This document shows, piece after piece, positions 18,648 to 24,188 of a DNA stretch of 64,000 bases. The stretch covers positions 63,277-127,276 of the forward strand of contig NW_017264208.1 of assembly GCF_001619985.1 (NCBI RefSeq), written 5' to 3'. The position numbers and the translations under genes were made by a program. This DNA comes from Xylona heveae TC161. Taxonomy: Eukaryota; Ascomycota; Xylonomycetes; Xylonales; Xylonaceae. The notes under the pieces were generated by a model, which saw nothing but the letters and a program-made list of their open reading frames with translations, searched no databases and was not told where the DNA came from. Within the stretch, counting starts at the first letter, position 1. Each line of letters starts with the position of its first letter.

Positions 18648-20430
18648 TTATGGAGCCAACTTGCTCTTTCCTCTCAGCCACGGACCCCAGATCCGAAATG
18701 CCAGAGGAATTGGAATCATAATAGCTGCTAAACAACCGAGTAGAGTACCAGCCCATTGCACACCTAAATTTTTGAACATCTGTTTCGAGAAGAGAGGAAA
18801 TCCGGCTGCAACGCTGGAGCGGAGGATGATATTTGCGGCTACTGTGGATGCTGCTCTTTAAGAAAATCAGTTTTTCGCTGAATAAATAAATGGTAAATCA
18901 ACTTACAAAGGGAGATATGAGTCAACCAGATAATTGAAACACGGAAGAAAGATGCATAAGACACCAAATCCAATAAGTACACCCGCCGCAGTTGGCGCCA
19001 TCCAATGAATAGTAGAAGTAAAACCAGTCCAGCCAAACCTGGCTCAAGTCAGTACATAAAAGCAACGGAAAAGAATTACTCGGGGTGATAAAAATACATA
19101 CCAAAACAAACCAGCAGTGAAGATGGGAGCACCGACAATGGCAGGCAGAAGGCGCCATTCAGGAACAGGGACATTGTTATTTGCATTCAATTTCTTCACA
19201 TAAATTGAATGCTGTGAAAGGATAAAGCAACATGCCGGCACTTGGCCAACGATAAGACCGTTGAACGTTAATCCTCCAACGCCAGGGCTCATTCCATATA
19301 TCGTCTCGAACACAAAAGGGTATGCTTCTAACATTGCGTATACCAGACCGTATATGAAGGACATGTAGAGAGAGATGAGCAGGATGATAGGCTCTGTGAC
19401 AAGCATTCGTACTGGACGGGTAAAATTATTCTGAATTAGCTCATGAAGGTCGATTTCCACTTCATCCTGCTTGGCGTGAATCCCCCAGTTTAAAGTTTGA
19501 CGGCGCAGAGCTGCGGCCTTCTCGACTAACAGAAATGGTGCATATGTTTCATTGAGGAGGAGGATGAACAGGGAAAAGCTCGCAAAACTCATGAATGCAG
19601 GTATGTAGAGAGTCCATCGCCAGCCCAGAGAGCTGGTTGCAATGAAACCACCGATGAAGGGGGCGCTAAAGGGACCAACAAACACGGTCAGAGAATAAAT
19701 GGTGATTGCTACCCCTCGATGTGCATTGTTGTAGATGTCGGATAAAACTGCTGGTACGACTGAGAGTTGACTGGCACCGAACATGCCAGCAAAGAAACGG
19801 CATAGGATCAATGTTTGGATATCTTTTGCGATCGCTGATGCAATAGTAAAAATGGCACCGCCAAACATTCCAATGGTCAACGGCCAGCGTCTTCCAATCA
19901 ACTCTGAGGCAGGGGCCCATAGTAACGGACCCGAGGCAAAGCCCAAGACATACAAGGTGGTACCGAGTGTAGCAACCTCTGAGCTGACGCCAAAAGCTTT
20001 GCTTGCACCTTTAATGCCAGGAGCAAATACTGCACTTGTGAACGAGGCAGTCAGCGTGCCAAAACAAGCAATCGAAGAAAGATATAGTCTGAAAATAGTC
20101 TGTCAGAACTGGTCCAGATACAACTTTTGTCAGGGTTGCATACTTGACAGGAAGACTCCAATTATGAGGATGCTCTGGGTCATCGCTCCCATCAAATTCA
20201 ACCACATAATCTTCTGGATCTGGAAGAGCAGGAGGAAATGGCTTTCCATCCCCCATTTTCAAGGGACGGTCATGTCCTGTCTCTCTGCCATGGTTTGAGC
20301 CCACAGTCAATTTTTGTTGCAGGCGATTGGTGGTGATTCGAGCCAATTCCAAAGCATCCAAGTAGCGGTGATCTGAATTATTTGCCTGTGATGGTTGATT
20401 ATCAGCTTGGCTGGATTGAGGAGACTCCAT
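18648..20430 (-). CDS. MFS transporter, DHA1 drug:H+ antiporter type
   Basis: Four exons, 20430-20144, 20088-19102, 19038-18907 and 18855-18648, with introns of 55, 63 and 51 nt; 537 residues. The junctions restore family sequence: SLPVK-LYLSSIACFGT and AGLFW-FGWTGFTST. A 95-residue polar cytoplasmic N-terminus ends in DPEHPHNW, typical of fungal DHA1 members. The twelve helices follow, with motif A around ASELIGRRWPL and motif C-like VFVGPFSAPFIGGFIA. It should move a small organic compound across the plasma membrane by proton antiport. Its start lies back to back with the Zn2Cys6 regulator, and its promoter shares a triplet array with that gene and with the nitronate monooxygenase, so export or uptake of that enzyme's substrate is a fair guess. 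Confidence 0.92.
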
Positions 20431-20611: not shown

Positions 20612-20632
20612 CGGATGGTGCGGTTGTTGCGG
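20612..20632 (-). promoter_or_regulatory. CGG array with 9-bp pitch upstream of MFS gene
   Basis: CGG begins at 20612, 20621 and 20630, exactly 9 bp apart, about 180-200 bp before the transporter's ATG. Read on the transporter's strand it is CCGCAACAACCGCACCATCC followed by G. The same pattern occurs in the two neighbouring promoters. Direct CGG repeats with 6-bp gaps are known sites for some Zn2Cys6 regulators (Hap1), and CCGCA is the half-site of AlcR. Confidence 0.65.
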
Positions 20633-20882
20633 AACCACTAAACTTGAGATGCCAGTGATTATAGCATCCGGTCAAACAATGCATGATCAACGTGTGGCGA
20701 TACTCAAAATCTTTTCTTGAATAAGATACATTATTCTATCTGCCTCTATTTCCTTTCATACACGCGCAGCCCCAAGCCACGTATATAGGATTCCTCGGAG
20801 CTTGAATGACGACAACCAAGTGCCTGGTGTGCTTAGGAAATCTCTACGGTCGAGACTGCTGATCACTAACCCATCTCGCGTC

Positions 20883-20912
20883 CCGCAAGTACCGTAATTA
20901 CCGCAATATCCG
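20883..20912 (+). promoter_or_regulatory. CCG array with 9-bp pitch upstream of Zn2Cys6 regulator
   Basis: CCG begins at 20883, 20892, 20901 and 20910: four triplets in perfect 9-bp register, 100-130 bp before the regulator's ATG. Three of the four are followed by C, and the first three by YAA. This fits autoregulation. Confidence 0.7.
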
Positions 20913-21011
20913 CCACAGCCATGATATCCTCCCGTTGCCTTACGTCGTTCATGAAGCTTATTCCCATATCGCAATTGATTGGATAAAAATTTCTTTTTAC
21001 TCTACATTATC

Positions 21012-22700
21012 ATGGCATCCTCCACCGGACAGCTCAAGCGCAAGCGCTCTCGGGTAGCGTGCGAGCCCTGTCGAGAACGAAAGAGAAAATGCAATGGAGG
21101 AAACCCTTGTCTGACATGCACTGAATGGGGATATGACTGCTTCTACAAAAACCACCATCGCGCAGAAGCCCAGTCGTCTTTAATTCCAGCTCCACCTGAA
21201 GATCTGCAGGATGCTTCTGTTGCCGAAAGATCAATACCGGACACCGTACGGTCTGAGGATCAAGACGTCGCGCAACGTTTGGAAGCAAATTCCGGAGCTG
21301 CTTTTGTGAGAAAGCTGGGCCTCAAAGTCGATCCGGAACATGCACCCAAATTGAACCTTTTTGGATGGAACATCGGCGCGCGTCAAGGACTTTTAGGCGC
21401 CGAATCTGCCTCTGCTCTGCCTAGTCTCAATGTTATTCCTCTAGCAGACATGCGGGAATTGGCATGTGTCTACTTCGCAAAGGTCGACCCATGTTACGGT
21501 TTCATTGATTCCCGTGTTTTCTATGAGCGCTTGGATGCGCGTTGGCGTTCGCCTCTGACAAGCAGCTCATATGATAGTGTGCTGGCTGGAGTTGCTGCGC
21601 TTGGATCACTTTTCTCTACCAGGAATCTCGGCATTACAGAACACCATCTGGTGAAGACAGCTCAGGTGCAATTAGAAACGGAGCTTTTGATCAAAGCTCC
21701 TTGTCTGGACACACTTACCGGCTGGACGCTTCGAGTAATCTACATGAGAATGACGGCATCTCCATATCCTGCATGGATCGCAAGTTGTACTTTGATGCAT
21801 TTGATTGAAGCTGCAGGTTTCCACCTCAAACCATCTAGCGACACAGTCCTTTCTTGTGGCGTACAGTGCGATCCCCAGATTCGAGGGAGACTAATTGGGG
21901 TAGCACAGCACCTCAACATGTGGATTTCTTACGATCTCGGCCTCTCAATGGTTCCACTACACAACGAGAACCCATTGACTTTATCTCCTAGAGAGGGCGA
22001 CTATACGACCGAGCTTCTTAATCTCTTGCCAGTTTCATCCAGCCTGGCACCAGACAAGACTCGAAATGACACTGATCTGCAATCACTTCTTTTACAGATC
22101 TTGAATGGAGCACACAGTCAGCCGCCATCTGTTCTCGCCCAATGCAACCTTGTCCTATGTCTACTTCGCCGACTGCGAGCCTTGAATTCCAACCTTTCCT
22201 CTCTTCTTCTCGAGAAAGTCCTTGCGTTATTCAAACAGGGCCTCTGTGCCGCGCGCACCATGGCAATGAGCTGCAATCCCTGGCACCACGTAGCCAACGT
22301 ACCTTTTCACATCATCAGCATTCTCCTCGAGATGGACAGCCGTGTCTCATTTGCTTTACTCCCAGAAGCAATGCAGACATTGCGACAGGTCGCCAACACG
22401 TACAACACTGCAACTATGCGCGAGGCTCACAATACCGCCTGCCTGCTAATCTTTCTCTATCAACGACGCAGGTCCGAAGATGTAAGCCTCTTTAGTTCTA
22501 TTATGGGTGTTCACTGTCAGCCTTCAGAGCTCAGACCGTCCCCACGACAAATGACACCAAGCTCTGAAGGAGTTTCCTGGCTGGAAGGTTTGGTTTCCGA
22601 GCTTCCCAACTTGCAGGGGTTTGACTTCACGCAATTCTTGCAAGACATGAATGATTTGTCTCAGGATGTAGACGTGGTCGACGGGATTAATTTTATGTAA
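21012..22700 (+). CDS. Zn2Cys6 fungal transcription factor (cluster regulator)
   Basis: Single exon, 562 residues from the ATG at 21012. A basic stretch (LKRKRSRVA) precedes the binuclear zinc cluster C17-x2-C20-x6-C27-x5-C33-x2-C36-x6-C43. The middle domain has the fungal-specific signature region, with GWTLRVIYMRMTASPYPAWI followed by ASCTLMHLIEAAGFH. It binds DNA in the nucleus. The likely targets are its own gene and its two neighbours, because each of their promoters carries CCG triplets spaced 9 bp apart. This is inference from position and motif; no binding specificity can be read from the protein alone. I saw no intron and none is needed. Confidence 0.92.
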   Translation: MASSTGQLKRKRSRVACEPCRERKRKCNGGNPCLTCTEWGYDCFYKNHHRAEAQSSLIPAPPEDLQDASVAERSIPDTVRSEDQDVAQRLEANSGAAFVRKLGLKVDPEHAPKLNLFGWNIGARQGLLGAESASALPSLNVIPLADMRELACVYFAKVDPCYGFIDSRVFYERLDARWRSPLTSSSYDSVLAGVAALGSLFSTRNLGITEHHLVKTAQVQLETELLIKAPCLDTLTGWTLRVIYMRMTASPYPAWIASCTLMHLIEAAGFHLKPSSDTVLSCGVQCDPQIRGRLIGVAQHLNMWISYDLGLSMVPLHNENPLTLSPREGDYTTELLNLLPVSSSLAPDKTRNDTDLQSLLLQILNGAHSQPPSVLAQCNLVLCLLRRLRALNSNLSSLLLEKVLALFKQGLCAARTMAMSCNPWHHVANVPFHIISILLEMDSRVSFALLPEAMQTLRQVANTYNTATMREAHNTACLLIFLYQRRRSEDVSLFSSIMGVHCQPSELRPSPRQMTPSSEGVSWLEGLVSELPNLQGFDFTQFLQDMNDLSQDVDVVDGINFM

Positions 22701-23102
22701 TGTTAGTGGAGCAAGATATCAAGTGCATGACATTGGAGATAGTAATGCTTTCACGAAGTACATGCAAGCTGGCAATCCATAAAGTTCGTCTTGTAAGAGT
22801 ACTGAAATTAAATTCTAATTCCTCTTCATAATACTGGAAAAAGTTGAAACACTATACCGTTATGTCATACTTCTAACTAATCCGCGGAGACAGTTGGTGG
22901 CGGCTACACAACAATGATCTTCCCGCAATTCCCGCAATAGCCGCTACGCCCCGCCCGCGGCCTATATAAGTGTCGAATGTGGAATGCTCACGGCTGATCC
23001 TTTCCTCCCTACGTAACAATATATCATATAGTCTACAAGTAACTAAGTGAATTATCTTCTTTCCATTCAACCAGACGAACAATAAAAAAATAAAAATTAA
23101 AC
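22701..23102. other. Intergenic, promoter of nitronate monooxygenase
   Basis: Holds the CCG array at 22923-22943 and a TATATAA-like stretch near 22962. No gene seen. Confidence 0.6.
22923..22943 (+). promoter_or_regulatory. CCG array with 9-bp pitch upstream of nitronate monooxygenase
   Basis: CCG begins at 22923, 22932 and 22941, again 9 bp apart, 160-180 bp before the ATG. The gaps are CAATTC and CAATAG, close to CAAGTA and CAATAT in the regulator's own promoter. Confidence 0.68.
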
Positions 23103-24188
23103 ATGTCATCAGCACGGCATTTGGCTAAGAATCTCATGTCACTCTACCCATGGGTCACCAGCCCATTAATAGTCAGCGCTCCCATGCGCGTCATGTCCGG
23201 CCCGGTGCTGGCAGTAGCCGTCTCTCGCGCCGGCGGATTGGGATTTATTGGCCCGGGGGTCAAAACTCAGGACATGTTCAAAGACCTCGAGGAGGCATCA
23301 GCGCTGGTCAAAAATCCAAAATGGACAGCACGACCACCACCCGTAAATTCGACGCTTCCTGTCGGAGTAGGTTTTCAACTGTGGAGTGATGATGCCGAGA
23401 TAGCAGTATCTGCCATACGGCAATTCAAGCCCTGCGCTGCGTGGCTGTACGCGCCGAGAGAAGGGCAAAAGGAGTATGATCTCTGGTCGACGAAGATTCG
23501 CAAAGCGTCGCCTCATACGCAGATATGGATCCAGATAGGTACTCTGGCAGAGGCAGTGCAACTCGTCCGAGAAGGTCCCGCTGAGCAAAGACCTGATATC
23601 ATTGTCGTGCAGGGCGCAGAGGCTGGCGGGCATGGTCGGGCTAAAGACGGAATGGGTCTCATGACTCTCTTCCCGGAGGTGGCGGATGCCTTGGCACACA
23701 GCGAGATACCGCTCTTCGCTGCTGGAGGTATTACTGATGGACGAGGAGCAGCGGCTGCGTTGTGTCTCGGTGCTTCGGGCATAGTCATGGGTACGCGGTT
23801 CCTGGCTTCGACGGAGGCACGGATAAGCCGGGGGTATCAAAATGAGATTATACGGGCTAGTGATGCGGCTACGTCAACCACGAAGACCTTGCTGTACAAT
23901 CATCTGAGGGGAACGATGGGGTGGCCAGAAGAGTATAGTCCCCGAACGATTATTAACAGATCATTCATTGAGCACCAAAAGGGGTCTCCATTTGAAGAGT
24001 TGAAGAAGCTTCACGATGAATCGCTCAAGGCTGGTGATAGTGGCTGGGGGCCAGAGGGCCGGCTGGCAACCTATGCTGGAGCTGGCATTGGATTGATTCA
24101 CGAGGTCAAGGATGCTGCAGCGATTGTTCGGGAGACTCAAGAGGGAGTGCGAGAGAGACTGAGCTCCGGGAATAAATATAAACTATAA
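23103..24188 (+). CDS. Nitronate monooxygenase (2-nitropropane dioxygenase family)
   Basis: Single exon, 361 residues. A TIM-barrel FMN enzyme of the NPD/NMO family: N-terminal SAPMRVMSGPVLAVAVSRAG with GGLGFIGPG, the catalytic histidine H177 in VQGAEAGGHG, and the phosphate-binding loop FAAGGITDGRGAAAALCLGA then GIVMGTRFLAS. These enzymes oxidise alkyl nitronates such as propionate 3-nitronate to the aldehyde or keto acid with release of nitrite, and can detoxify nitro compounds made by plants or fungi. It follows the Zn2Cys6 regulator on the same strand. Its promoter array links it to that regulator and to the transporter. Key residues appear intact. Confidence 0.93.
   Translation: MSSARHLAKNLMSLYPWVTSPLIVSAPMRVMSGPVLAVAVSRAGGLGFIGPGVKTQDMFKDLEEASALVKNPKWTARPPPVNSTLPVGVGFQLWSDDAEIAVSAIRQFKPCAAWLYAPREGQKEYDLWSTKIRKASPHTQIWIQIGTLAEAVQLVREGPAEQRPDIIVVQGAEAGGHGRAKDGMGLMTLFPEVADALAHSEIPLFAAGGITDGRGAAAALCLGASGIVMGTRFLASTEARISRGYQNEIIRASDAATSTTKTLLYNHLRGTMGWPEEYSPRTIINRSFIEHQKGSPFEELKKLHDESLKAGDSGWGPEGRLATYAGAGIGLIHEVKDAAAIVRETQEGVRERLSSGNKYKL

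What the first reader, a model, noticed from the sequence alone, without database searches (positions are those of the whole stretch)
20612..22943. Three neighbouring promoters share CCG/CGG triplet arrays at exact 9-bp pitch
Direct reading shows CGG at 20612, 20621 and 20630 (MFS promoter), CCG at 20883, 20892, 20901 and 20910 (regulator promoter), and CCG at 22923, 22932 and 22941 (nitronate monooxygenase promoter). Ten triplets fall in register in three places, each 100-200 bp before an ATG, and the gaps share a CAA start (CAAGTA, CAATAT, CAATTC, CAATAG, CAACAA). Known parallels: Hap1 binds CGG-N6-CGG direct repeats, and AlcR uses CCGCA half-sites. A tandem array of three or four half-sites at helical near-period 9 is unusual. 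The local Zn2Cys6 protein is the obvious candidate binder, giving a self-regulated module.
Basis: partly seen in the sequence, partly recalled or inferred. Interest (0 to 1): 0.8.

Follow-up and report, generated by a model that had tools for sequence, protein, structure and literature searches.

The report
Tandem binding-site arrays in fungal cluster
Three neighbouring fungal genes (a transporter, a regulator and a detoxification-type enzyme) each carry three or four evenly spaced copies of a short DNA word in front of them, most likely landing sites for the regulator encoded between the other two, which would make this a small self-regulated unit of a known general type.

Summary
The genome (Xylona heveae TC161 by protein match) holds 527 generic (CCGN6)2CCG matches against 781 for a reversed control, so the bare pattern is common. 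Special are three arrays in non-coding gaps of one 2.3-kb stretch with a longer shared half-site, CCG-Y-A-A: 3 of the genome's 4 exact matches to CCGYAAN3CCGYAAN3CCG are here, and 0 of 1000 shuffles reproduce the arrays. The genes share contigs in other fungi (regulator with NMO 20 cases, with MFS 22, all three 5). One of the seven 12-bp units is one mismatch from the published KojR motif CGGCTAATGCGG. Such near-KojR sites lie within 4 kb of 4 of 99 Zn2Cys6 hits in this genome, including 3 of 3 members of this regulator's family. Best reading: CGG-N6-CGG direct-repeat operators of the local Zn2Cys6 protein in an autoregulated unit. Binding is inferred; conservation of the arrays between species could not be tested, as no fungal relative's DNA was found. 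The kind is known (KojR, Hap1); the in-register tandem of 3-4 half-sites is a variant.

The parts
20612..20632 (-). MFS-promoter array: three half-sites CCGCAACAA CCGCACCAT CCG(TTATCC), 9-bp pitch
20883..20912 (+). Regulator-promoter array: four half-sites CCGCAAGTA CCGTAATTA CCGCAATAT CCG(CCACAG), 9-bp pitch
22923..22943 (+). NMO-promoter array: three half-sites CCGCAATTC CCGCAATAG CCG(CTACGC), 9-bp pitch; contains CGGCTATTGCGG (reverse strand), one mismatch from the published KojR motif
22963..22969 (+). TATATAA, a TATA-box-like sequence 19 bp downstream of the NMO array
   Evidence: direct reading
21012..22700 (+). Zn2Cys6 regulator, 562 aa in one open frame (finger C17-C43, 21060-21140)
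   Evidence: Pfam PF00172 E 6.9e-10; 98% to X. heveae P0001
23103..24188 (+). Nitronate monooxygenase-family enzyme, 361 aa
   Evidence: PF03060 E 1.1e-36; PDB relatives named nitronate monooxygenase, 2-nitropropane dioxygenase and FMN enoyl-ACP reductase
18648..20430 (-). MFS transporter with introns, divergent from the regulator; public model starts at 20256
   Evidence: PF07690 E 3.7e-36 for the main exon; P0241 99% over 94%, 'putative bicyclomycin resistance protein', X. heveae

Best explanation
The three arrays are operators for the Zn2Cys6 regulator encoded at 21012-22700. The functional unit is a head-to-tail CGG-N6-CGG direct repeat (reverse strand, mostly CGG-NNN-TTR-CGG), of the kind bound by KojR, apparently as a dimer, and each promoter carries it as overlapping units: three or four half-sites CCG-Y-A-A every 9 bp. 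The regulator would thereby switch its own gene, the divergent exporter and the downstream nitronate monooxygenase together, plausibly on sensing a nitro or nitronate compound or another toxicant that is then oxidised or exported. Shown: positions, consensus, rarity of the specific array, gene content and contig sharing in other fungi, near-KojR sites beside the other two family members. Inferred: that this protein binds these sites, that it binds as a dimer through its C-terminal part, the direction of control (activation likelier), and the inducer.
For: Arrays not reproduced in 1000 shuffles. Spacing-6 CCG pairs: 7 in 982 bp of the locus gaps against 2 in 19,782 bp of other non-coding window DNA and 1 in 14,223 bp around six other Zn2Cys6 hits, picked by hand. 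3 of 4 exact matches to CCGYAAN3CCGYAAN3CCG in 24.3 Mb are here (two overlapping in the regulator array, one in the NMO array; the MFS array has one mismatch); the fourth lies in a 351-aa open frame. Same half-site in three promoters whose remaining sequence is not alike. Contig sharing: regulator and NMO in 20 cases, regulator and MFS in 22 (X. heveae itself among them), all three in 5, with consecutive locus tags such as Penicillium alfredii NUU61_009182/3/4. KojR full-length gSELEX motif CGGCTAATGCGG; two CGG triplets only with full-length protein, read by its authors as a dimer. In this genome the KojR 12-mer with at most one mismatch has 79 sites (control 83); within 4 kb they reach 4 of 99 Zn2Cys6 hits, including 3 of 3 family members (P 2.6e-5; 6.3e-4 with the locus left out).
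Against: No binding or expression data exist. Genome-wide, the generic array (527 vs 781 control), CCGYAN4CCGYAN4CCG (21 vs 19), the one-mismatch YAA array (22 vs 31), CCGYAAN3CCG (353 vs 602) and the KojR 12-mer (79 vs 83) are not enriched or barely so, so most single matches are background. Only 1 of the 7 units here is within one mismatch of the KojR motif; the others differ at 2, 3, 3, 3, 4 and 4 positions. The paralogue test is partly after the fact: KojR was picked because it resembles the locus, both paralogues were inspected before the test, and at 3 kb only 2 of 3 family members count. The C8 paralogue's four pairs contain a 118-bp duplication and lie about 1.7 kb from its regulator gene. 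The paralogues show pairs, not 9-bp tandem arrays. 4 of the 10 arrays elsewhere that match CCGYAN4CCGYAN4CCG are in no frame of 120 aa or more, so they may be intergenic too.
Confidence: 0.7

Rival explanations
1. The half-sites are read singly: several regulator monomers line up on CCG-Y-A-A half-sites (as recalled for AlcR and XlnR), and the array raises local occupancy without a fixed dimer.
For: The conserved element is the half-site with its +1 to +3 bases, and arrays of three leave a half-site over for dimers. No ordered helix follows the finger in the model (residues 47-119 have pLDDT below 50).
Against: Pitch is exactly 9 bp in all seven intervals, which unlinked monomers would not need; in the MFS-regulator gap the only same-strand CCG spacings up to 20 are 6 (5 pairs), 15 (3 pairs, the skip-one distance of the same arrays) and 19 (1 pair). 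Full-length KojR selects two triplets at N6.
Confidence: 0.2
2. Another Zn2Cys6 protein of the genome (a global regulator or one of the two paralogues) binds the arrays; the neighbouring regulator is a target like the other two genes.
For: 99 Zn2Cys6 matches exist in the genome, a lower bound; CGG triplets are the common core (general knowledge); the 12-mer CCGCAATAGCCG occurs both here and beside the C1 paralogue.
Against: Near-KojR sites accompany 3 of 3 family members but 1 of 96 other Zn2Cys6 hits within 4 kb; regulators encoded inside a cluster usually control it (general knowledge).
Confidence: 0.15
3. The arrays are compositional or minisatellite-like coincidences without regulatory role.
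For: The bare pattern is frequent (527 matches), and short-period repeats in open frames make such matches, e.g. the seven overlapping C11 matches.
Against: Gaps that differ between units, three separate promoters, same orientation, 0 of 1000 shuffles; no promoter similarity beyond the arrays.
Confidence: 0.05

Closest known systems
KojR / kojic acid cluster of Aspergillus oryzae (PMC10890517: passages, section 15, section 18 part 1 of 2; PMC9961346: passages)
   Same: Zn2Cys6 protein with the same cysteine spacing, 14 of 27 finger residues identical; CGG-N6-CGG site, one of the seven units here being one mismatch away; several copies crowded in one promoter; cluster with an MFS transporter gene.
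   Different: Partner enzyme KojA is an oxidoreductase of kojic acid synthesis, not a nitronate monooxygenase; an 11-bp palindromic motif is proposed instead for A. flavus KojR; whether the kojT copies are in 9-bp register is not stated in what I read; the full KojR sequence was not compared.
Hap1/Cyp1 (CGG-NNN-TA-N-CGG; consensus recalled)
   Same: Direct repeat of CGG at N6; finger matched by profile (1hwt E 7.7e-5).
   Different: TA at spacer positions 4-5 in 0 of 7 units here (TT in 6, GT in 1); no confident coiled coil after the finger.
AlcR (half-site recalled as CCGC(A/T))
   Same: 7 of 10 half-sites read CCGCA or CCGCT; its finger matches the profile weakly (1f4s E 0.0029).
   Different: AlcR's long loop between cysteines 3 and 4 (recalled, 16 residues) is absent: 5 residues here.

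Membership tests
CGG-N6-CGG direct-repeat operators (KojR type) | Two CGG in the same orientation separated by 6 bp | tested here: met
   7 overlapping units in three promoters
CGG-N6-CGG direct-repeat operators (KojR type) | Matches KojR 12-mer CGGCTAATGCGG | tested here: inconclusive
   1 of 7 units within one mismatch (22932); the other six differ at 2 to 4 positions
CGG-N6-CGG direct-repeat operators (KojR type) | Demonstrated binding by a dimer | not testable with these tools
   needs in vitro binding
KojR orthologue | Full-length homology and kojA partner gene | tested here: inconclusive
   Only the finger printed in PMC9961346 was compared (14 of 27); partner here is an NMO-family enzyme
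Hap1 sites | Spacer CGG-NNN-TA-N-CGG (recalled) | tested here: not met
   0 of 7 units have TA at spacer positions 4-5
AlcR | Long loop between cysteines 3 and 4 (recalled) | tested here: not met
   C-x2-C-x6-C-x5-C-x2-C-x6-C
Zn2Cys6 regulators (PF00172) | Six-cysteine binuclear cluster | tested here: met
   E 6.9e-10, 39.3 bits over a cut-off of 21; cysteines invariant in 25 of 25 aligned rows
Nitronate monooxygenase (PF03060) | Profile match over the curated cut-off | tested here: met
   127.4 bits against 28
Nitronate monooxygenase (PF03060) | Oxidation of a nitronate | not testable with these tools
   enzyme assay needed; solved relatives also include FMN enoyl-ACP reductases

The most novel reading that the evidence does not exclude
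A widespread ascomycete detoxification unit (MFS exporter, Zn2Cys6 regulator, nitronate monooxygenase) is controlled through tandem arrays that a head-to-tail chain of more than two regulator molecules occupies in 9-bp steps, giving a copy-number-graded, switch-like response; and one regulator family reaching from this protein to KojR-like proteins shares a single CGG-N6-CGG code beside its own genes.
Probability: 0.15. Interest if true: 0.6.

Novelty: new variant of a known kind. Interest (0 to 1): 0.42.

Why it matters
It would give a candidate operator for a regulator family whose genes share contigs with nitronate monooxygenase and exporter genes in many ascomycetes, and a natural series (three, three and four half-sites) for asking how tandem half-sites set the output of a fungal promoter. 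It also suggests a cheap way to predict operators: near-KojR sites lie within 4 kb of all three family members found in this genome. Four literature searches that named the enzyme together with other terms (listings, and passages of one paper) showed no paper on this gene cluster; the library lacks most subscription journals.

Tried and rejected

Large regulon: unsupported. CCGYAAN3CCG (353 vs 602 control), CCGYAN4CCGYAN4CCG (21 vs 19), the one-mismatch array (22 vs 31) and the KojR 12-mer (79 vs 83) show no clear excess. CCGCAWTRSCCG does (36 vs 13), but it was built after seeing the sites, and part of the excess may be unrelated GGCC words; I do not lean on it.

Promoter duplication: rejected; blastn of the three promoters aligns the regulator and NMO arrays (25 bp, and two shifted registers) and otherwise gives matches of 8-13 bp with E 1.3 or more. 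Regulator-NMO fusion protein: rejected for this genome; the 879-aa public model P0001 skips the stop at 22698-22700 and the NMO start. NMO paralogues C10 and C2 (40% and 31% over parts): of the CCG-N6-CCG pairs in the fetched stretches one is of the YAA kind (L037, CCGTAAAGCCCG, on the far side of the matched exon by my count) and none of the CAA kind; promoters were not mapped. Literature holding both 'RDR1' (the name several public relatives bear) and 'CCGCAA': 0 papers. MoIRR paper (PMC9024399, passages) and A. fumigatus Nmo paper (PMC9323177, passages): nothing on this operator in the passages seen.

Full report
Where it is. The window is G000:C16:63277-127276 of a 24.28-Mb, 17-contig genome. 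The regulator and MFS proteins are 98% and 99% identical to Xylona heveae TC161 proteins from a contig of the same length as C16, 352,448 bases, so the organism is X. heveae or very close. The genes are an MFS transporter (minus strand, from 20430 or 20256 down to 18648), a Zn2Cys6 regulator (plus, 21012-22700) and a nitronate monooxygenase-family enzyme (plus, 23103-24188).

The observation. Every triplet is at the stated coordinate. In all three promoters CCG is on the strand of the gene. Over the ten half-sites the bases after CCG are Y 10/10, A 7/10, A 9/10; the next three positions vary. The last unit of each array keeps CCG-Y-N-A but loses CAA. The units are CCGYAA-like half-sites or, read on the other strand, overlapping direct repeats, CGG-NNN-TTR-CGG in 6 of 7 cases.

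Is it chance? Generic triple array: 4 in the window against 0.28 expected, 0 of 100 shuffles as high, but genome-wide 527 matches against 781 for the reversed pattern, so the bare pattern means little. Allowing any trinucleotide and any period from 6 to 30, 0 of 1000 shuffles of the three promoters have one array type in all three. CCGYAN4CCGYAN4CCG has 21 matches (control 19) that form 13 separate arrays; 3 of the 13 lie in this 2.3 kb, and of the other 10, 6 are inside open frames of 278 aa or more and 4 are in no frame of 120 aa. The stricter CCGYAAN3CCGYAAN3CCG has 4 exact matches: 3 here (two overlapping in the regulator array, one in the NMO array) and one in a 351-aa frame; the MFS array has one mismatch, and with one mismatch allowed the total is 22 against 31 for the control. 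Spacing-6 CCG pairs number 7 in 982 bp of the locus gaps, 2 in 19,782 bp of other non-coding window sequence and 1 in 14,223 bp around six other Zn2Cys6 hits. Non-coding here means outside any frame of 120 aa, a crude rule for a genome with introns.

The gene set in other fungi. Equal length means same contig, not neighbourhood, but locus tags confirm neighbours where they are given: NUU61_009182/3/4 in Penicillium alfredii is MFS-regulator-NMO; regulator-NMO pairs are BBP40_011073/2, MMC16_005520/19, M1818_005476/5, N7467_009360/59, N7459_002737/6 (MFS 002739), N7468_001119/8 and N7495_005823/2. Four of the 120 listed regulator hits are models that fuse regulator and NMO (P0001, P0029, P0036, P0089); in X. 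heveae this is a gene-model error, because a stop codon separates them. The lists hold only best hits and say nothing on how many species lack the arrangement.

The known parallel. KojR of Aspergillus oryzae, a Zn2Cys6 protein in a cluster with an MFS gene, selects CGGCTAATGCGG in gSELEX; two triplets appear only with the full-length protein, which the authors take as a dimer, and four CGGN6CGG copies are densely distributed in the kojT promoter (PMC10890517: passages, section 15, section 18 part 1). A. flavus work proposes an 11-bp palindrome instead (PMC9961346, passages). The unit at 22932 read in reverse is CGGCTATTGCGG, one mismatch from the KojR motif; the other six units differ at 2 to 4 positions. 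The fingers share 14 of 27 residues and the same cysteine spacing.

A within-genome test. Of 10 matches to the regulator in this genome (best candidates only), apart from the gene itself two proteins match along most of their length: C8:365704 and C1:1820067 (two matches), about 28% over 521 and 488 residues; the other six match at or near the finger. Beside the C1 gene, about 500 bp past its stop and before a gene with NmrA and NAD(P)-binding profiles, lies CGGCTATTGCGG, with further N6 pairs. Beside the C8 gene, between a zinc-binding dehydrogenase and an MFS gene, lies CGGGTAATGCGG in both copies of a 118-bp duplication. Non-coding spacing-6 pairs are 4 in 3,419 bp of the C1 stretch and 4 in 3,332 bp of the C8 stretch, the latter two independent because of the duplication. 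As a test I searched the published KojR 12-mer with up to one mismatch: 79 sites, control 83. Within 4 kb of the zinc-cluster position they reach 4 of 99 Zn2Cys6 hits, including all 3 family members (hypergeometric 2.6e-5; 6.3e-4 if the locus is left out); the fourth, C3:1403541, is one of the six weaker finger-region matches to the regulator. At 3 kb it is 2 of 99, both family; at 10 kb 7 of 99, including all 3. The distance and the choice of KojR came after seeing the loci, so I read this as good support, not proof.

Mechanism. A model of the regulator is modest (mean pLDDT 65.6, 25 sequences): a finger, a low-confidence linker (47-119 below 50) and a helical middle part. Foldseek found 0 of 466 matches at E 0.001 or better; the best is 8ow1 chain ce (E 3.6e-3, TM-scores 0.46/0.49), an inner-kinetochore entry that by sequence search holds CBF3 subunit B (Cep3), itself a Zn2Cys6 protein (that chain ce is Cep3 is inferred). 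No confident coiled coil follows the finger, so a dimer would have to form through the C-terminal part, as the KojR data suggest. On three half-sites a dimer has two overlapping, mutually exclusive registers; on four it has three, of which two can be filled at once. Nine base pairs turn the helix by about 309 degrees at 10.5 bp per turn, so successive half-sites step slowly round the DNA. Whether dimers, monomers or a longer chain fill the array cannot be told from sequence.

Function of the unit. The enzyme belongs to PF03060; solved relatives by sequence include nitronate monooxygenases, 2-nitropropane dioxygenases and FMN enoyl-ACP reductases. With an MFS exporter, response to a toxic nitro compound is the natural guess; no inducer is known and other substrates are possible.

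Verdict. The feature is real, and the local Zn2Cys6 protein is the best candidate binder. The kind of operator is known; the strict tandem of three to four half-sites in three promoters of one gene set is a variant I did not see described in the passages read here, although the register of the four kojT copies was not given.

Noticed in passing
window 21012-22700; P0002, P0003, P0183, P0195, P0242, P0245, P0246: Lipomyces yeasts hold relatives of the regulator (61-63% identical), the MFS (80%) and the NMO (68-71%), with pairs on shared contigs. In a tree of 29 regulators the two Lipomyces rows group with Aspergillus melleus (100/99) among Pezizomycotina, which suggests horizontal transfer; drawn with a midpoint root, bootstrap not fully settled.
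   Followed up: partly
window 21012-24188: The public X. heveae model P0001 ('inosine monophosphate dehydrogenase', 879 aa) fuses regulator and NMO across a stop codon, so that the NMO promoter array would lie in its intron.
   Followed up: yes
L059 about 8092-8327 (G000:C8): A 118-bp tandem duplication carries two CGG-N6-CGG pairs per copy between a zinc-binding dehydrogenase and an MFS gene, next to a regulator paralogue whose finger shares 17 of 27 residues with KojR.
   Followed up: partly
L012 1501-1521 (G000:C2:1829105-1829125): CGG-GAGGTG-CGG-ATAATG-CGG array outside any long frame, about 490 bp upstream of an open frame with a 6-phosphogluconate/3-hydroxyisobutyrate dehydrogenase-type NAD-binding domain; one of its units is one mismatch from the KojR motif.
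   Followed up: partly
G000:C8:1126598 and G000:C1:1714974: Two further copies of CCGCAATAGCCG, the NMO-array unit, elsewhere in the genome: possible regulon members or background.
   Followed up: no
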